Positions 19,579 to 26,291 of a stretch of 40,627 bases of DNA are shown here, piece after piece. The position numbers and the translations under genes are program-made. Source of the stretch: Gordonia desulfuricans NBRC 100010. Its GTDB lineage: Bacteria > Actinomycetota > Actinomycetes > Mycobacteriales > Mycobacteriaceae. The DNA lies in the NCBI RefSeq assembly GCF_001485495.1, contig NZ_BCNF01000089.1:1-40627 (forward strand), given 5' to 3'. Positions within the stretch are counted from its first letter, which is position 1. Every line of letters starts with the position of its first letter. The notes beneath the pieces are model-generated. The model was not told the origin of the DNA. It ran no database searches and saw only the letters and a program-made list of their open reading frames with translations.

Positions 19579-19610
19579 GCCCGGCCTCGGCTGACCGATG
19601 GTCGGCACCG

Positions 19611-19770
19611 CAACCCCTCTCGATGGTTGAGCAGGACGACCCCGCCCAGCGAGGCCGACCGGCCGTCGAAACCCGATGACACACACATGTGCGCAACCAC
19701 ATCCGACGTCGGCCGACAGAGGTTTCGACACGGGTCCTCGCTCCGCTCGGTCCCGGCTCAACCACCGTGC
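19611..19770. repeat. Intergenic inverted-arm repeat, copy 1
   Basis: A 160-bp unit almost identical to the next copy at 19791-19950. Its two arms, 19625-19673 (GGTTGAGC...GTCGAAACC) and 19721-19763 (GGTTTCGAC...GGCTCAACC), are imperfect inverted repeats of one another separated by about 47 bp, so the unit can fold into a long cruciform or hairpin. It has no ORF of note and no terminal target-site duplication I can see. The GGCTCAACC/GAGCCGGGACC core is shared with the repeats at both window ends. Confidence 0.85.
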
Positions 19771-19790
19771 GCCACAACCACTGTGCGCCG

Positions 19791-19950
19791 CAACCCCTCT
19801 CGATGGTTGAGCAGGACGACCTCGCGCAGCGAGGCCGACCGGCCGTCGAAACCCCGTGACACACACTTGTCCGCAACCACATCCGACGTCAGCTGACAGA
19901 GGTTTCGACACGGGTCCTCGCTCCGCTCGGTCCCGGCTCAACCACCGTGC
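19791..19950. repeat. Intergenic inverted-arm repeat, copy 2
   Basis: The second unit follows the first with an exact 180-bp period (160-bp unit plus a 20-bp linker). Differences from copy 1 are a handful of substitutions clustered in the middle and left arm; the right arm (TTTCGACACGGGTCCTCGC...) is unchanged. Recent tandem duplication, or slippage, of a widespread actinobacterial intergenic repeat is the simplest reading. The rest of the 471-bp gap 19579-20049 holds only the hairpin at 19996-20024 and a short A/T-rich patch near 19957. Confidence 0.85.
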
Positions 19951-19995
19951 ACCGCTTATTCTTTTAGCCGGGCTACCGTGAGACCAACCGCCGTG

Positions 19996-20049: not shown

Positions 20050-22572
20050 CTACAGCTTCTCCCCTGGCAGACCACCCAGGGTCATGAACGTCATACGGCC
20101 GACGCCGCCACCGAAGTCGAAGGTGACGCGCTCGGTGGGACCGTTGCCCTCCTTCGCGATGGCCTTGCCCAGACCGTACTTCGGATGGTTCATCCGCTCA
20201 CCGATCTCGTAGTTCACCTGTTTGTTGCGCCCACGGTTGGGATCGGAGGAGTACGACGCCCGGCCGAGTCCCCGACCGGAATCGCTGCGCGCGGAGTCAC
20301 CGCGGCCGAACACCCCACCGGAGGAACCGTGGCCACGGCCCGACCGACGGCGCTCGGTCTGACGCCATTCGATCAGATGCTGCGGGATCTCCTGCAGGAA
20401 ACGGGATTCCGGATTCGACACCGGCTGACCCCAGGATGCACGGGTGAGCGCACGGGTCAGGTACAGCCGCTGCTTGGCGCGGGTGATGCCGACATAGGCG
20501 AGTCGCCGCTCCTCGCTCAGTTCGTTCGGATCTCCGAGGGCACGCATGTGCGGGAAATGCCCGTCCTCCCAACCGGTCACGAAGACCACCGGGAACTCCA
20601 GGCCCTTGGCGGTGTGCAGCGTCATCAACGTGACCACACCCTCGCCCTCGTCGGGCAACTGGTCGGCGTCGGCGACGAGGGCCACCTTCTCGAGGAAGGC
20701 CGCGAGCGAACCCGGCTCGGGCTCCCCCTCGCGCATCTGCTGCTCTTCCTCGTCGAGCTCGGCTGCCGCCTCGGCGGCCTCGAGACTGAATTCCCGTGCC
20801 ACCGAGATCAACTCGTTGAGGTTGTCCAGGCGGGCACCGTCCTGCGGGTCACTCGAACCCTCGAGCTCGGCGCGGTACCCGCTGCGGTCGACGATCGCGT
20901 CGACGAGTTCACCGATGTCGGCGGCCTCCTCGGTCGCATCGATCACGGCGGTGTCGGACTCGGCCTCACCCTCCGCCGCGAAGGTCACCAGGAAGTCGGT
21001 GCGCAATCCCTCGATCAGGTCGACGAATCCGCCGATCTGCTTGACCGCACGGGTGTTCAGCAGCGCCACCTGACCGGCCGCACCCTCCACCAGCGCCTGG
21101 TAGAACGAGATCCCCCGGTTCTCCGAATGGACGGCCACACAGGCCTCGGCACGATCACCGATACCACGTCGGGGGGTGTTCAGGATGCGACGCAGACTCA
21201 CCGAATCGTCCGGGTTGGCCACCACACGCAGGTACGCGACGATGTCGCGCACCTCCTTGCGCTCGTAGAACTTGGTCCCGCCGACCACCTTGTAGGGGAT
21301 GCCGTGCCGGACGAAGACCTCCTCCAGCGCACGTGAGCCGGTGTTGGTGCGGTAGAACACGGCGACGTCGCCGTAGGTGTTGCTCTGGGCGCCGCCGATG
21401 GTGTGGTCGGTGAGCCGTTCGATCTCGGTGGCCACGAACATCGACTCGTCGCGATCGGACTCGGCGACGAACCCGACGATCAGCTCGCCGTCACCGGAAT
21501 CGGTCCACAGACGCTTCTCGCGCCGGTTCGGGTTCTGCGCGATCACCGCGTTCGCCGCCGACAGGATGGTCTGCGTCGAGCGGTAGTTCTGTTCCAGCAG
21601 AATGGTTTCCGCGTTGGTGAAGTCGCGCTCGAACTCTTCGATGTTGCGGATCGTGGCACCACGGAACGCATAGATCGACTGGTCGGCGTCACCCACCACA
21701 CACAGCTCCGACGGCGGCACACCGGTGTCGGGAGAACCGGAGCCATCCGCGGCGGTGTCGAGACCGACGAGTTCGCGGATCAGCACGTACTGCGCGTGGT
21801 TGGTGTCCTGGTACTCGTCGACCATGACGTGACGGAACCGACGCCGGTAGTACTCGGCCACCTCGGGGTGACGTTGCAGCAGGGCGACGGTCTCGCCGAT
21901 CAGGTCGTCGAAGTCGAAGGCATTGCCCGCCCGCAGCCGCCGCTGGTACTCGCCGTAGATCTGGGCGATCGTGCGCGCGGTGGGCTCGTCACCGGCATCG
22001 GTGAGTGCCTGATCGGGGTCGATCAGTTCGTTCTTCAGATTCGAGATGCTCACCGCCACCCCGCGAGGCGCGAACTTCTTGGGGTCGAGCTGCAGATCGC
22101 CGATCACCATCCCGAGCAGACGCTTGGAGTCGTCGGAGTCGTAGATGGAGAAGTTGGAGTTCATCGGTGCCAGCAGCGCCGACTGGGCGCGCAGGATGCG
22201 CACACAGGTCGAGTGGAAGGTCGACACCCACATGAACGATGCGCGCGGACCGACCAGCGAGATGACACGCTCGCGCATCTCGGCGGCGGCCTTGTTGGTG
22301 AAGGTGATCGCCAGGATCTGTCCCGGCGTCACATCCCGGGCGGCGAGCAGATAGGCGATCCGCCGGGTGAGCACAGAGGTCTTACCCGATCCGGCACCGG
22401 CCACGATCAGCAGCGGCGGACCCGAATGCACCACCGCCTCACGCTGCTGCGGGTTGAGCCCGTCGAGCAGACGGGCGACACGGTCGTCGGCGGGACTCCC
22501 GGCGGCATCGACGGGACGCGCCGACACAGACTGGGCCGGGCGGCGGGAAGCGGGGTGAACAGAACTGGTCAT
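20050..22572 (-). CDS. pcrA: ATP-dependent DNA helicase PcrA/UvrD1
   Basis: An 840-residue superfamily 1A 3'-5' helicase acting in nucleotide-excision repair and in removing RecA or RNA polymerase from DNA. It has the Q-motif LNPQQREAV, Walker A AGAGSGKTSVLTRRIAYLL (motif I, about residues 58-76), motif II VDEYQDTNHAQY, motif III VGDADQSIYAFRGA, motif IV/V segments and motif VI VGITRAKQRLYLTRA. The C-terminal tail ends in a Tudor-like domain (MNHPKYGLGKAIAKEGNG...VTFDFGGG), which in PcrA contacts RNA polymerase. Length is normal for actinobacterial UvrD1. The start at 22572 gives a polar, disordered N-terminus. In M. tuberculosis uvrD1 (Rv0949) sits between Rv0948c and Rv0950c; here two extra genes separate it from chorismate mutase. 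Confidence 0.97.
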   Translation of the reverse strand: MTSSVHPASRRPAQSVSARPVDAAGSPADDRVARLLDGLNPQQREAVVHSGPPLLIVAGAGSGKTSVLTRRIAYLLAARDVTPGQILAITFTNKAAAEMRERVISLVGPRASFMWVSTFHSTCVRILRAQSALLAPMNSNFSIYDSDDSKRLLGMVIGDLQLDPKKFAPRGVAVSISNLKNELIDPDQALTDAGDEPTARTIAQIYGEYQRRLRAGNAFDFDDLIGETVALLQRHPEVAEYYRRRFRHVMVDEYQDTNHAQYVLIRELVGLDTAADGSGSPDTGVPPSELCVVGDADQSIYAFRGATIRNIEEFERDFTNAETILLEQNYRSTQTILSAANAVIAQNPNRREKRLWTDSGDGELIVGFVAESDRDESMFVATEIERLTDHTIGGAQSNTYGDVAVFYRTNTGSRALEEVFVRHGIPYKVVGGTKFYERKEVRDIVAYLRVVANPDDSVSLRRILNTPRRGIGDRAEACVAVHSENRGISFYQALVEGAAGQVALLNTRAVKQIGGFVDLIEGLRTDFLVTFAAEGEAESDTAVIDATEEAADIGELVDAIVDRSGYRAELEGSSDPQDGARLDNLNELISVAREFSLEAAEAAAELDEEEQQMREGEPEPGSLAAFLEKVALVADADQLPDEGEGVVTLMTLHTAKGLEFPVVFVTGWEDGHFPHMRALGDPNELSEERRLAYVGITRAKQRLYLTRALTRASWGQPVSNPESRFLQEIPQHLIEWRQTERRRSGRGHGSSGGVFGRGDSARSDSGRGLGRASYSSDPNRGRNKQVNYEIGERMNHPKYGLGKAIAKEGNGPTERVTFDFGGGVGRMTFMTLGGLPGEKL

Positions 22573-22738: not shown

Positions 22739-24328
22739 ATGACGAACTCGACGAAGGTTTTTGCCCTGCTGTTGTCCGCAATCGGCGCCGTGGCGGTGAT
22801 CGTCGCCCTGGTGCTGTCGTTCATCCCGTGGAGTGCGTCGGGAGCCGCAGAGGCGACACCGGCGTTCCGCGCGCAGTCCAGTCTCGACCAGGTGGCCTTC
22901 CAGTACGGCAGCAGCCCCGGCGCCCGCTACAACGGGACCCTCGTCCAGAAGTACGGCAGCTCCACCGAGACCTACCAGCTCAGCGACCTGACGGTCACCC
23001 TGTCCAACAATGCGTCGGGCCAGGTCACCGTCGACGGCCAGCGCGCCGACTACACCCAGATCGGCAACTACGGCTTCGCGAAGGGGCCGACCGCCTTCTG
23101 GCAGAAACTGCTGTCGGCCGACACCCTGAAGGATGTCGACCTCGCCCCGTTCGACAATGTGTGGGCCAGCGCCGAGTGGGCCATGCCGTCGCTGGGCTCG
23201 ATCCTGTCCCCGCAGATCATGGCCGGTCGCATCGGCAACGCCGACCTCGTGTCGCCGCCGACCCTCGGCGCCGAGCTGGCCGCACCGAACGCCAACACCC
23301 CCGACGCCCGCTTCTGGCCGACCTCCGACCCGCCGATCGAGACACTCGCCGAGAACAAGGTGCGCGCAGGCAAGTGGGAGATCACCTTCGACCCGTCGAC
23401 CAAGGCGATCACCCACATCAAGGGCGAGTACGCCACCCCCAGTGGCCGGACCACCTATCAGCTCGACACCGACGTCACCCCGCTGCCGGTGGACCAGCTC
23501 AACTCCGTGTTCGACGGCCAGCGCGGGCTGACCACCCAGCTCGGCTCGGTCCCGGCCCCCGGCATGCTGCTGGAGAACCTGCCCAACGCCCGGCTCGGCA
23601 TCCTCGACTGGAAGCAGACCGGCGACTGCACCAACGTCGCGTGCGGCTACGACTTCACCGTGTCGGGCACCCCGCAGAACAACGACGACGCCGTTCCCGG
23701 GCACGTCAACTACGGCCTCACGATCAACTTCGCCGTCAACTCGCAGCCGGCCGGTGCGGTCGGCGGGACGTGTACGCCGGTGGTCCGCGTCGACTTCGGC
23801 CGCACCGGCAGCACCCGGTGTGTCGCGACCAACCTCGGTGCCGGCGGCGGCTCGATTCGCCCCAACGTGAAGCTGACCTATCTGCCGTTCCTGGACTACG
23901 GCACCGAAGACCTGGCCGACTATCTGAAGTCCAACGTGGAGGCCACACAACGCCAGTTCACGATGCAGCGCACCGGCACCAAGCGGCCCGACGCCGCGAG
24001 GTACAACTTCTACATCGCCGGCCTGCCGAGCAGTTATGTGATCAAGCGCGGTGACTACCTGTTCGACGGCTACGGTCCCCGTGGCGCCTATCTGGTGGCC
24101 TTCGCCCCCGGCTATTCCGACCACGTGACCGGCACCACCTTCGACCCGTCCTGGTCGGGCACCGCCACCCTGCGCGACCAGATGACCAAGCAGGCGTCGG
24201 CCGCCGGTGACGGCCGGATCGTCTACTACAGCCCCGAACAGAAGACGGTCGACGCCCTCAAGGCGATGGTGATCCAGGCCGGCCTCGGCGACAAGATCAC
24301 CGTGTACCTGGCCGAACAGGAGAGCTGA
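22739..24328 (+). CDS. Membrane-anchored protein with degenerate Tox-REase-5-like C-terminal domain
   Basis: 529 residues. One N-terminal transmembrane helix (~8-32) leads to a large extracytoplasmic region with three cysteines or more (GDCTNVACGY, GGTCTP, STRCVATN). The C-terminal ~115 residues read RYNFYIAGLPSS..., FDGYGPRGAYLVAFAPGY (442-459), LRDQMTKQASAAGDG, then RIVYYSPEQKTVDALKAMV and KITVYL. This order matches Tox-REase-5, a restriction-endonuclease-fold toxin domain of polymorphic toxins, whose core is FDG...LxEAKG.GY. Here Val453 and Phe455 replace the Glu and Lys of E-x-K, so nuclease activity is unlikely. No immunity gene follows; the next gene is convergent. ATG 22739 follows GAGGAAA; TAGTGT at 22694-22699 may be its -10. 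The domain match is from memory; function unknown. Confidence 0.72.
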   Translation: MTNSTKVFALLLSAIGAVAVIVALVLSFIPWSASGAAEATPAFRAQSSLDQVAFQYGSSPGARYNGTLVQKYGSSTETYQLSDLTVTLSNNASGQVTVDGQRADYTQIGNYGFAKGPTAFWQKLLSADTLKDVDLAPFDNVWASAEWAMPSLGSILSPQIMAGRIGNADLVSPPTLGAELAAPNANTPDARFWPTSDPPIETLAENKVRAGKWEITFDPSTKAITHIKGEYATPSGRTTYQLDTDVTPLPVDQLNSVFDGQRGLTTQLGSVPAPGMLLENLPNARLGILDWKQTGDCTNVACGYDFTVSGTPQNNDDAVPGHVNYGLTINFAVNSQPAGAVGGTCTPVVRVDFGRTGSTRCVATNLGAGGGSIRPNVKLTYLPFLDYGTEDLADYLKSNVEATQRQFTMQRTGTKRPDAARYNFYIAGLPSSYVIKRGDYLFDGYGPRGAYLVAFAPGYSDHVTGTTFDPSWSGTATLRDQMTKQASAAGDGRIVYYSPEQKTVDALKAMVIQAGLGDKITVYLAEQES

Positions 24329-24347: not shown

Positions 24348-26291
24348 TCACCCGCCGAGCAGGGCGGCGTCGACCACCTCACCGACACGACCCTCACCGG
24401 TGTGCAGGGCGAGCCCGGCGGTGATCGGCCGGACGTGGACGGCGGTCCCGGAACCGTCGAGCTGCACATAGACCGCGTGCAGTCCGGCGGTGACCGGCAC
24501 CCGGATCGGGCTCCCGCCGTCGAGGGAGAACTCGACCTCGCCGGACCGGTTGGCGCAGTAGGTCAACGCGAGGGTCCACCGCCAGCGCAGCAGCGGACCG
24601 TCGAGGCGCAGGTCGGCGGGACCGGTCAGCTCGGGCCGTGCGCAGGTCCCCCGGCCCGCGACGATCGTCCGTTGCGGGGTGACCGCGCCGGCGGTGAGGT
24701 TGCCCGCGGGGTCGAGCACGTTGAGCCGATCGGTCCACCCCCCGAACTCGGGGCGGTCGGAGACCCGACCGAAGGTGTGGCTGATCTGGTTCTCCGGGAA
24801 GGCCACCGGCAGCAGCACCTCCAGCGGCAGTTGCTGATCGAACATCCGGTGATCGCGATTGGCCGCGAGCGCGCGCGTGGCGTTGTCCAGATACGGCCCG
24901 GTGGGGTCGTCGGTCCACGACGACTGGTACGACGCCAGCGACAGCATCGACGACGCGAACAGGACCGCGCCGACGAGCAGACCGGCCGGCACGGCCAGCG
25001 CCGTCATCGGCGACTCGGAGGTGTCGTCGACGCGCGCGTGCCGTGGTGCGGCCGGCACATCGCGGCGCGCGGGCGCACCGATGATCAGCGCCGCGGCGAG
25101 GGTCAGCACCAACGCGGAATCGGGCAGGTAGCGCATGGTCTGGGCGAGTTCCAGTGCGGTGTTGGCCGACGACCGGTTCCACATCACCGGGATCTGCGCC
25201 ACCACCACGTAGAGCGCCGCACAGATCAGCACCGCGATCGCACCGGTCCGCAGACGCACCGCCACCACCACCAGGGCGGCCGCCAGCACCCAGCCCGCCA
25301 CGATCATCCAGACCGGCGCGAAACCCATCGGCGGGCTCGGCACCCATCGTTGCCAGTCCCACGGACCACCGACCAGCGACGGCACCACGGCGTTGTCGAT
25401 CGACCGCCACACCAGATGTGCGGTCTGCGAGATCGAGTGCTCGCCGGCGGTGGCGTCAGAGATCGAGACGAACGCCAGCGCCCACGCGACAAAGACGATG
25501 CCGAGCACCGTCCACAGCCGACGGCCCCGGACGAAGGCCACGGTCAGCGGCGGCCGATCGGAGAACCGCGCGGCGAGCACGGCGGCGGCGAACGCCACCG
25601 GCAGGATGAACAGCGACTTCTCGAAGAACGCCAGCGCCACCACGAAGACCACGGCCGACCGGATGACGATCAGGCGGGCGCGCCGCGGGTCGACGTCGCC
25701 GCGCACCAGGATCACCGCATCGGCGACGATCCAGGCCATCGCCGCCTGCATCGGCAGCGTGTTCAGCCCGGCCGCCCACCACACGAAACCCGCCACCGTC
25801 ATCGGAGTGAACAGATAGAACGCCAGCGCCCCCAGCGCGGCGAGATCACGCCGGGAGGTGGTCCCGTCGGCCGCAGGCGGCACGACGGTGCGGATCATCC
25901 GCCACACCGCCAGGGACGCAATCGCCTGCAGCACCACCAGGGTGGCCGCCGGCAACGCCCAGGTGACCGGGGCGAGCACGGTGGAGACACCGGCCACCAG
26001 GAACGCGGCCGGCATGAAGTGCCCGTCGTGTGAGTGCCCGAGGAACTCCCACGACAGGATCGGCTGCGTGGACGCGCGGCCGATCAGGATCAGGTCGTCC
26101 CAGTAGAAGTTCCCGGTGCCCGCCAGCCATCCGCGGATGACCAGTTGCGCCACGATCAGCGCGATCGCCACCAGGACCGGCACCGACGGCGCGACCAGGG
26201 CCGATCGCCACGGCGATGCCGTCTCCGAGGCCGATGGTCGGTCGCAATGATCGGGTGTGGACGGCACCGTCCGCGGGCTGGGCATGGCCAC
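24348..26291 (-). CDS. Polytopic membrane protein, possible GT-C type glycosyltransferase
   Basis: 647 residues with about 11-12 hydrophobic helices, then a C-terminal soluble beta-rich region of ~150 residues (from about 500; for example RTIVAGRGTCARPELTGPADLRLDG). The first extracytoplasmic loop carries NFYWDDLILIGRAST, with paired acidic residues as in GT-C enzymes, which use lipid-linked sugars outside the membrane. Histidines in the following HSHDGHFMPAA are also suggestive. No named family is recognised, so glycosyltransfer is inference. The C-terminal domain may bind polymer or carbohydrate. GTG 26291 follows GGGGACA; ATG 26285 is an alternative. It is divergent from chorismate mutase (42 bp) and convergent with the Tox-like gene, the two genes absent from the M. 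tuberculosis arrangement. Confidence 0.72.
   Translation of the reverse strand: MAMPSPRTVPSTPDHCDRPSASETASPWRSALVAPSVPVLVAIALIVAQLVIRGWLAGTGNFYWDDLILIGRASTQPILSWEFLGHSHDGHFMPAAFLVAGVSTVLAPVTWALPAATLVVLQAIASLAVWRMIRTVVPPAADGTTSRRDLAALGALAFYLFTPMTVAGFVWWAAGLNTLPMQAAMAWIVADAVILVRGDVDPRRARLIVIRSAVVFVVALAFFEKSLFILPVAFAAAVLAARFSDRPPLTVAFVRGRRLWTVLGIVFVAWALAFVSISDATAGEHSISQTAHLVWRSIDNAVVPSLVGGPWDWQRWVPSPPMGFAPVWMIVAGWVLAAALVVVAVRLRTGAIAVLICAALYVVVAQIPVMWNRSSANTALELAQTMRYLPDSALVLTLAAALIIGAPARRDVPAAPRHARVDDTSESPMTALAVPAGLLVGAVLFASSMLSLASYQSSWTDDPTGPYLDNATRALAANRDHRMFDQQLPLEVLLPVAFPENQISHTFGRVSDRPEFGGWTDRLNVLDPAGNLTAGAVTPQRTIVAGRGTCARPELTGPADLRLDGPLLRWRWTLALTYCANRSGEVEFSLDGGSPIRVPVTAGLHAVYVQLDGSGTAVHVRPITAGLALHTGEGRVGEVVDAALLGG

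What the first reader, a model, noticed from the sequence alone, without database searches (positions are those of the whole stretch)
22739..24328. Membrane-anchored protein whose C-terminus looks like a nuclease toxin domain that has lost its catalytic residues
The last ~115 residues follow the Tox-REase-5 layout: an R-Y-x-x-Y-I-x-G entry, FDG, then a strand ending PGY, a long Q-containing helix, and a final strand-helix-strand. In active members the strand before GPGY reads E-A-K-G; here it reads V-A-F-A (Val453, Phe455). The protein is tethered by one N-terminal helix rather than carried by a secretion domain, no immunity gene follows, and it is inserted between pcrA and chorismate mutase relative to the M. 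tuberculosis order. This suggests a toxin fold reused as a fixed envelope protein, perhaps a binding or decoy domain. Family resemblance is from memory.
Basis: partly seen in the sequence, partly recalled or inferred. Interest (0 to 1): 0.72.

Follow-up and report, generated by a model that had tools for sequence, protein, structure and literature searches.

The report
Tethered toxin relative without nuclease residues
A Gordonia membrane protein ends in a domain descended from a nuclease-type bacterial toxin that has lost its cutting residues; relatives of the same membrane-tethered carrier still hold active-looking, exchangeable toxin tips with partner genes, so this looks like a weapon turned into a fixed surface protein.

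Summary
The gene (22739-24328, 529 aa) encodes one N-terminal helix, an ectodomain with four conserved cysteines and a C-terminal domain homologous to Tox-REase-5 (PF15648): profile-profile probability 99.8, reversed control 0.2. The catalytic [ED]-x-K, present in 23 of 23 hand-picked intact relatives, is absent from 59 of 59 domains of this family; the FDG aspartate stays in 58. The loss is old: 39 such domains form one clade (100/99), and one branch holds the same pcrA-side slot in three genera. So this is an apparently undescribed single-helix polymorphic-toxin carrier whose Gordonia branch lost catalysis yet stays under purifying selection. Most likely role: extracytoplasmic recognition domain; a kinase gene lies close upstream in 5 of 15 sister-clade loci.

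The parts
22739..24328 (+). whole gene, 529 aa, stop included
   Evidence: ORF and translation; 40 of 59 genomes of the genus, the window's own included, hold a match
22760..22828 (+). N-terminal membrane helix, about residues 8-30
   Evidence: read from the sequence; hydrophobic segment seen across the 26 rows of A1 printed
22829..23950 (+). ectodomain scaffold, residues 31-404; shared with relatives that carry intact toxin tips
   Evidence: scaffold profile (residues 1-404, 37 rows) hits L061 2.2e-42, L062 2.8e-40, L127 1.5e-39, L166 3.5e-29; further tips
23627..23821 (+). span of the only four cysteines, C297, C302, C345, C361 (possible disulfides)
   Evidence: 51 of 56 full-length members have exactly four cysteines, 5 have five; C297, C345, C361 invariant, C302 at 90% or more
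23951..24325 (+). C-terminal domain homologous to Tox-REase-5 (PF15648), residues 405-529
24062..24070 (+). FDG, residues 442-444, retained
   Evidence: aspartate in 58 of 59 family members and 23 of 23 intact ones
24095..24103 (+). V453-A454-F455, in place of [ED]-A-K
   Evidence: 0 of 59 with an acid at the first place or lysine at the last, R in 4 and H in 3; intact E18 D5 and K23 of 23
24236..24238 (+). E500, near-invariant in the catalytic-less family (58 of 59; intact N9 E7 D5 Q1 T1)
20050..22572 (-). pcrA/uvrD helicase, divergent neighbour that marks the conserved slot
   Evidence: Pfam UvrD-helicase 2.9e-88; synteny
24348..26291 (-). 647-aa membrane protein (by eye), convergent neighbour; no Pfam match at E<=0.01
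   Evidence: conserved neighbour

Best explanation
The protein is a catalytic-less member of a family of membrane-tethered polymorphic-toxin carriers found in Gordonia and other genera of its GTDB family. A single N-terminal helix anchors it in the plasma membrane with a cysteine-bearing scaffold outside (topology inferred). In relatives the C-terminal tip of this scaffold is an exchangeable toxin, mostly with a partner gene directly downstream. In Gordonia and two other genera a Tox-REase-5 tip without [ED]-x-K and without a partner gene has been fixed beside pcrA, and now works, I infer, as an extracytoplasmic recognition or ligand-binding domain, possibly feeding membrane signalling. Shown here: homology, loss, shared scaffold, varied tips, tip-matched downstream genes, synteny, purifying selection in close pairs. 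Inferred: outside orientation, fold, that an ancestor had a partner gene, binding role.
For: Profile-profile match to intact domains with reversed control. 0 of 59 domains with E/D or K at the catalytic places against 23 of 23 intact. Same scaffold on intact Tox-REase-5 proteins L061 and L127 (scaffold 2.2e-42 and 1.5e-39; PF15648 1.7e-9 and 7e-12) and L062 (2.8e-40; PF15648 4.7e-6), on XOO_2897 deaminases and on an unnamed domain with DIDVG and QAK/QLK. Tip-matched downstream genes in 12 of 17 loci. One catalytic-less clade of 39 rows, 100/99. Same slot in 16 of 16 named Gordonia loci and in two further genera; empty slot in 17 of 17 fetched Gordonia loci without the gene. C-domain dN/dS 0.06-0.41 in ten disjoint close pairs picked by hand. 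New near-invariant residues K415, S431, W472, E500. Kinase gene of 59-80% identity, or the reference itself, close upstream in 5 of 15 other-clade loci; kinase and scaffold in one ORF in L051.
Against: No structure, no binding partner, no experiment. The kinase link is not seen at the window's slot, covers only 5 of 15 loci of the other clade, and in L051 the C-domain lies in a second ORF after a frame break. 19 of 59 Gordonia genomes have no match, so the gene is dispensable. Some C-domain comparisons evolve faster: L035/L036 0.55, L010/L012 0.73. The window protein's nearest relatives are too distant for a clean dN/dS (L001/L002 0.40 at dS 0.61). Five of 17 tip loci show no tip-matched downstream gene. 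While checking this report I cut the kinase count from 7 to 5 of 15 and lowered this confidence from 0.55 to 0.5 for that reason.
Confidence: 0.5

Rival explanations
1. Relocated active site: the domain is still a nuclease that uses D443 with E500 and K415, conserved residues at other positions.
For: D443 58 of 59, E500 58 of 59, K415 56 of 59 in the family, while E500 and K415 are not fixed in intact domains. An unnamed tip on the same scaffold also departs from E-x-K, reading QAK or QLK.
Against: K415 lies 28 residues before and E500 57 residues after D443; the E and K places became hydrophobic in most members (V, I, M or L in 56 of 59 at the first; F, Y, L or A in 49 of 59 at the second). 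The window gene has no partner gene to protect the cell.
Confidence: 0.13
2. Decoy or antagonist: the tethered inactive tip binds incoming rival toxins, their receptors or foreign immunity proteins and so protects the cell or its kin.
For: Similarity to active tips by descent; retained FDG, Tyr and Gly positions.
Against: Immunity proteins of nuclease toxins normally work inside the target cell (recalled), while the tip is probably outside; the L061 partner gene has no match in any of 59 genomes of the genus (a search without positive control); ortholog-like slot and low dN/dS rather than arms-race diversity.
Confidence: 0.15
3. Inert cargo: the scaffold is what selection keeps; the inactive tip is only a structural cap or a slowly decaying remnant.
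For: In several pairs the scaffold is more constrained than the C-domain, e.g. L007/L008 0.03 against 0.17. Two scaffold proteins of genus g22, L219 and L226, end 20-22 residues after the scaffold and have no tip at all.
Against: New near-invariant residues in the C-domain; dN/dS under 1 in ten disjoint close pairs; in other pairs the C-domain is the more constrained part (L019/L021 0.06 against 0.15). Among the hits those that stop short of the C-domain are contig-end pieces, locus-edge cuts or broken copies.
Confidence: 0.17

Closest known systems
Tox-REase-5 (PF15648)
   Same: End-to-end domain homology; by my alignment Y422, FDG, Y459 and Q485 answer to the published residue set 'Y, FDG, EAK, Y, Q, W' (PMC3482391, passages seen).
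   Different: EAK replaced in 59 of 59; the late W is Y496 in the window and W in 25 of 59; single-helix tether; no downstream partner gene.
SitA lipoprotein toxins of myxobacteria (PMC5562445, passages seen)
   Same: Membrane-tethered polymorphic toxins with varied C-terminal tips and downstream immunity genes; the nearest concept for the intact relatives.
   Different: Lipobox instead of a transmembrane helix, N-terminal domains that their authors call unique, delivery by outer membrane exchange; SitA toxins are active. No sequence comparison with SitA was made here.
ESX (WXG), PrsW and HINT polymorphic toxins (PMC3482391, passages seen)
   Same: Same tip families; HINT domain before the tip in L218, L221, L227 and L220.
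   Different: The passages seen do not mention this single-helix scaffold; the rest of the paper was not read.
Teneurin/Odz GHH domain (PMC3482391, passage seen)
   Same: Precedent for a toxin domain without catalysis reused as an extracellular signalling part.
   Different: Animal proteins; another domain and scaffold.

Membership tests
Tox-REase-5 (PF15648) | sequence homology over the whole domain | tested here: met
   hhalign 99.8, E 4.1e-30, reversed control 0.2; 20 of 59 members hit PF15648 at E<=1, the window protein alone does not
Tox-REase-5 (PF15648) | catalytic EAK ([ED]-x-K) | tested here: not met
   0 of 59 against 23 of 23 intact
Tox-REase-5 (PF15648) | FDG aspartate | tested here: met
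   58 of 59, window included
Tox-REase-5 (PF15648) | other conserved Y, Y, Q, W | tested here: inconclusive
   Y422, Y459, Q485 present, W replaced by Y496 in the window
Tox-REase-5 (PF15648) | restriction-endonuclease fold | not testable with these tools
   structure prediction switched off; profile search of PDB sequences gave no row below E 0.075
Polymorphic toxin system | constant carrier with exchangeable C-terminal toxin tips | tested here: met
   for the scaffold family: Tox-REase-5, XOO_2897 deaminase, QAK/QLK type, L278 type
Polymorphic toxin system | active toxin tip and immunity gene directly downstream | tested here: not met
   for the window gene: catalytic residues absent, next gene convergent; for tipped relatives 12 of 17 loci have tip-matched genes, whose immunity function is untested
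Polymorphic toxin system | delivery into neighbours | not testable with these tools
   needs experiment
Pseudogene | broken or drifting reading frame | tested here: not met
   open frame in the window and in 56 relatives picked for full length, window included; C-domain dN/dS under 1 in ten disjoint close pairs. Broken copies exist too (L051, L054)

The most novel reading that the evidence does not exclude
A previously undescribed class of single-helix, ectodomain-tethered polymorphic toxins exists in Gordonia and related genera, and one branch has been domesticated: its nuclease tip lost catalysis once, gained new invariant residues and became an extracytoplasmic recognition or sensor domain, in part of a sister clade next to a Ser/Thr kinase: a bacterial counterpart of the teneurin story.
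Probability: 0.38. Interest if true: 0.78.

Novelty: new variant of a known kind. Interest (0 to 1): 0.62.

Why it matters
Toxin domains reused without catalysis are known as odd cases; here the series is laid out: intact tips with downstream partner genes, varied tips on one scaffold, and a vertically inherited branch without catalysis fixed beside pcrA in three genera. That makes it testable what a toxin fold does after disarmament. The carrier points to a membrane-tethered antagonism system in this bacterial family that I did not see described in the listings (open-licence library only).

Tried and rejected
Single-sequence searches of Pfam, NCBIfam and PDB gave nothing useful for the window protein (the one PDB row, a lignin peroxidase at E 0.17, is chance). 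PDB profile searches with the C-domain (10 rows, E 0.075 to 0.67) and the scaffold (one row, E 0.84) gave chance-level rows. PF15648 in the window's own genome: no match, but none of the control genomes rang either, so absence is not shown by that call. Pfam LEA_2 (best 2.2e-4, 4 of 56 members at E<=1) and the other weak rows were not followed. An LppX_LprAFG resemblance of the scaffold is only transitive: the scaffold profile hits L160 (6.1e-9) and L160 hits PF07161 (5.5e-6), but no row of A1 hit PF07161 at E<=1. Alignments A1 and A2 were too diverse for a pattern scan. dN/dS above 1 among distant pairs was set aside as saturation; that output was cut, and the ten pairs quoted were picked by hand from its visible top so that no sequence is used twice.

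Full report
What is there. The gene at 22739-24328 (+) encodes 529 aa with one N-terminal hydrophobic helix (about residues 8-30), an ectodomain and a C-terminal domain. It diverges from pcrA (start at 22572) and converges on a 647-aa gene that ends 19 bases after its stop codon; chorismate mutase follows, then an ORF that I take for pgi by eye. The only cysteines are C297, C302, C345 and C361; 51 of 56 full-length members have exactly four and 5 have five, which fits an oxidising place outside the membrane (inference). The genus is Gordonia: the contig of relative G030 has the length, 262,525, of the matching record of G. polyisoprenivorans NBRC 16320. The tool does not name the other genera; I use its codes g10, g15, g18, g22.

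Family. A protein search found matches in 40 of 59 genomes of the genus, the window's own included, and in 33 of 301 of a family-wide sample. 56 proteins picked for full length were aligned (A1) and 59 C-domains (A2): the same 56 plus L048 (contig end), L051 (second ORF of a broken gene) and L054 (piece of a broken gene). Left out of both: L063 (contig end), repeat views of the same gene, and L047, which proved to be an intact toxin.

Homology to Tox-REase-5. The window protein alone matches nothing in Pfam or NCBIfam. Of 59 family C-domains, 20 hit PF15648 at E<=1, best 7.9e-6; of 56 full-length proteins 13, best 1.2e-4. The family profile in turn finds toxins with the catalytic motif: L126 5.5e-26, L125 6.3e-26, L127 8e-22, L061 1.1e-20, which hit PF15648 at 1.8e-14, 1.2e-13, 7e-12 and 1.7e-9. 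L125 and L126 also have WXG100 matches under that family's cut-off (4e-4, 2.7e-3). Profile against profile: probability 99.8, E 4.1e-30, 123 columns; reversed intact profile 0.2. With only the window's own subfamily (27 rows): 99.3, E 1.1e-20; reversed 0.3.

Loss of catalysis. At the E place the 59 domains read V23 I12 M12 L9 A1 Q1 S1, at the K place F34 Y7 L4 A4 R4 H3 N1 Q1 G1; the FDG aspartate is kept in 58. The intact set A6 holds 23 domains picked by hand: 10 of the toxin loci fetched in this bacterial family, 12 of the 31 PF15648 loci, and L047 (L133 was dropped as cut short; L062, L131, L136-L138 are not in it). It reads E18 D5 and K23, aspartate 23. In the window these are V453 and F455. 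Other residues fixed in intact domains also slip: Q485 is kept in 44 of 59, the late W in 25 of 59. New near-invariant residues appear: K415 56 of 59, S431 58, W472 59, E500 58, G449 59, none of them fixed in the intact set. An intact catalytic set elsewhere is therefore not seen, but D443, E500 and K415 cannot be excluded as a rebuilt site without a structure.

The carrier. A profile of residues 1-404 (A5, 37 rows) matches proteins with quite different C-termini. Intact Tox-REase-5: L061 (2.2e-42), L127 (1.5e-39) and, within Gordonia, L062 (2.8e-40) (L062 hits PF15648 at 4.7e-6). XOO_2897-like deaminase: scaffold E 1e-24 to 1.8e-19 in L214, L217, L218, L220, L221, L222, L224; PF14440 in L217, L218, L221, L222 and L220; L214 and L224 are judged by eye. 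A pretoxin HINT domain lies before the tip in L218, L221, L227 and L220. An unnamed domain with DIDVG and QAK or QLK: L166, L213, L215, L216, L223, L225 and L279; Pfam named none of the three tested, L166, L216 and L223 (one row under cut-off in L216). In L278 (Gordonia, G037) the tip is again different and unnamed by Pfam. L219 and L226 end 20-22 residues after the scaffold without a tip. In genus g22 the scaffold was found in 19 of 128 genomes, in a family sample in 30 of 191.

Partner genes. Directly downstream of the tips, on the same strand, lie ORFs that match by tip in 12 of 17 loci examined: a 215-217 aa gene after 6 of 6 QAK/QLK tips; 130 and 139 aa genes of 41% identity after L061 and L127 (no Pfam family); 80% identical genes after L217 and L224; 43% after L218 and L221. 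L062 (140 aa) and L227 (271 aa) have a candidate without a match in the set; L214, L220 and L222 show no convincing gene. In L278 a 369-aa ORF overlaps the stop by four bases. At the window gene no such gene exists.

Descent. In the scaffold tree (52 rows) the pcrA-linked catalytic-less rows are one clade (23 rows, 98/98), a second catalytic-less clade has 13 rows (100/97), the two together have 90/85, and intact plus QAK/QLK rows form another clade (8 rows, 100/100), with L062 on the QAK/QLK side (98/93); L049, catalytic-less, joins that last clade weakly (87/70). In the C-domain tree (62 rows, 124 columns, the two catalytic columns not removed) all 39 catalytic-less rows are one clade, 100/99, L049 included, and L062 stands apart on a long branch. 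One loss is the simplest reading; L049 leaves a second loss open.

Place. tblastn with the window's neighbours shows the gene between pcrA and the 647-aa protein, chorismate mutase and pgi in 16 of 16 named Gordonia loci (L139-L154), in L182-L185 and L050, in 4 of 4 loci of g10 (L167-L170) and 3 of 3 of g18 (L171-L173) at 26-29% identity; pgi was not in the stretch of L170; L052 is the same place as L151. None of these neighbours was found in the stretches of L174-L181, L053 and L055-L060 (L049 is the same place as L174). Of the 19 Gordonia genomes without a match, 17 were fetched at pcrA: no match to the gene in 17 of 17, and pcrA is followed by the 647-aa protein gene in 15 and by chorismate mutase in 2 (L259, L260), with 36 to 813 bases between the aligned parts, too few for this gene. 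G010 and G045 were not fetched because their contigs end beside pcrA. The M. tuberculosis order was not tested.

Selection. In ten disjoint close pairs C-domain dN/dS is 0.06 to 0.41 (L008/L009 0.20, L035/L038 0.41, L033/L034 0.18, L002/L003 0.12, L013/L015 0.15, L005/L006 0.17, L055/L056 0.13, L019/L021 0.06, L039/L041 0.10, L043/L044 0.16). Against: L035/L036 gives 0.55, L010/L012 0.73, some dS values are tiny (0.04), and window against L002 gives 0.40 at dS 0.61.

Hints to function. In the second clade a kinase gene like that of L176 (Pkinase 7.1e-40) lies upstream on the same strand within about 1 to 2.5 kb in L057, L058, L176, L179 and L181, 5 of 15 loci compared (59-80% identity to L176). 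In L051 one ORF holds a kinase (7.8e-45) and the scaffold; the C-domain lies in an overlapping second ORF. L178, L180 and L174 (the wider L049 locus) lie beside an ESX-type cassette (in L178 PPE 2.1e-18, PE 9.4e-15, YbaB 8.5e-10; homologues in L174 and L180). These suggest an envelope signalling or secretion setting, not a proven one.

Literature. PMC3482391 (passages seen) gives Tox-REase-5 as 'Y, FDG, EAK, Y, Q, W' with Imm52, and cites teneurin as a toxin domain reused without catalysis. PMC5562445 (passages seen) describes SitA, lipoprotein polymorphic toxins. The listings showed no paper on this scaffold; most subscription papers are not held.

Verdict. In detail: a toxin-derived domain without catalytic residues, fixed on a tether. 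Its origin lies in a tethered polymorphic-toxin carrier that seems undescribed. Function is inferred.

Noticed in passing
L176 4582-6465; L051 3102-5574: Ser/Thr kinase genes close upstream of 5 of 15 second-clade relatives; in L051 kinase and scaffold share one ORF, with the C-domain in a second ORF after a frame break.
   Followed up: partly
L178 942-4616; also L180 and L174: ESX-type cassette (PPE, PE/EspC-like, YbaB-like and a Pro-rich protein) beside catalytic-less relatives.
   Followed up: partly
L166, L213, L215, L216, L223, L225, L279: Unnamed C-terminal domain with DIDVG and QAK/QLK on the same scaffold, with a conserved 215-217 aa downstream gene in 6 of 6 examined (L279 not examined); perhaps a further nuclease-type tip and partner.
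   Followed up: partly
L278 6374-8272 and 8269-9378: Gordonia scaffold protein with a tip that Pfam does not name and an overlapping downstream 369-aa gene, near a homologue (57%) of the gene, TPR-like by eye, that flanks L178 and L180.
   Followed up: partly
window 24348-26291: 647-aa protein, polytopic by eye, without a Pfam match at E<=0.01, found near pcrA in 16 of 16 named Gordonia loci with the finding's gene and in 15 of 17 without it.
   Followed up: no
window 19605-19953: Two direct copies of 169 bases, 94% identical, between the M23 peptidase gene and pcrA, with shorter 21-base repeats around them.
   Followed up: no
L160 1195-1992: LppX_LprAFG-type protein (5.5e-6) that the scaffold profile also hits (6.1e-9), hinting at a related fold in the first half of the scaffold.
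   Followed up: partly
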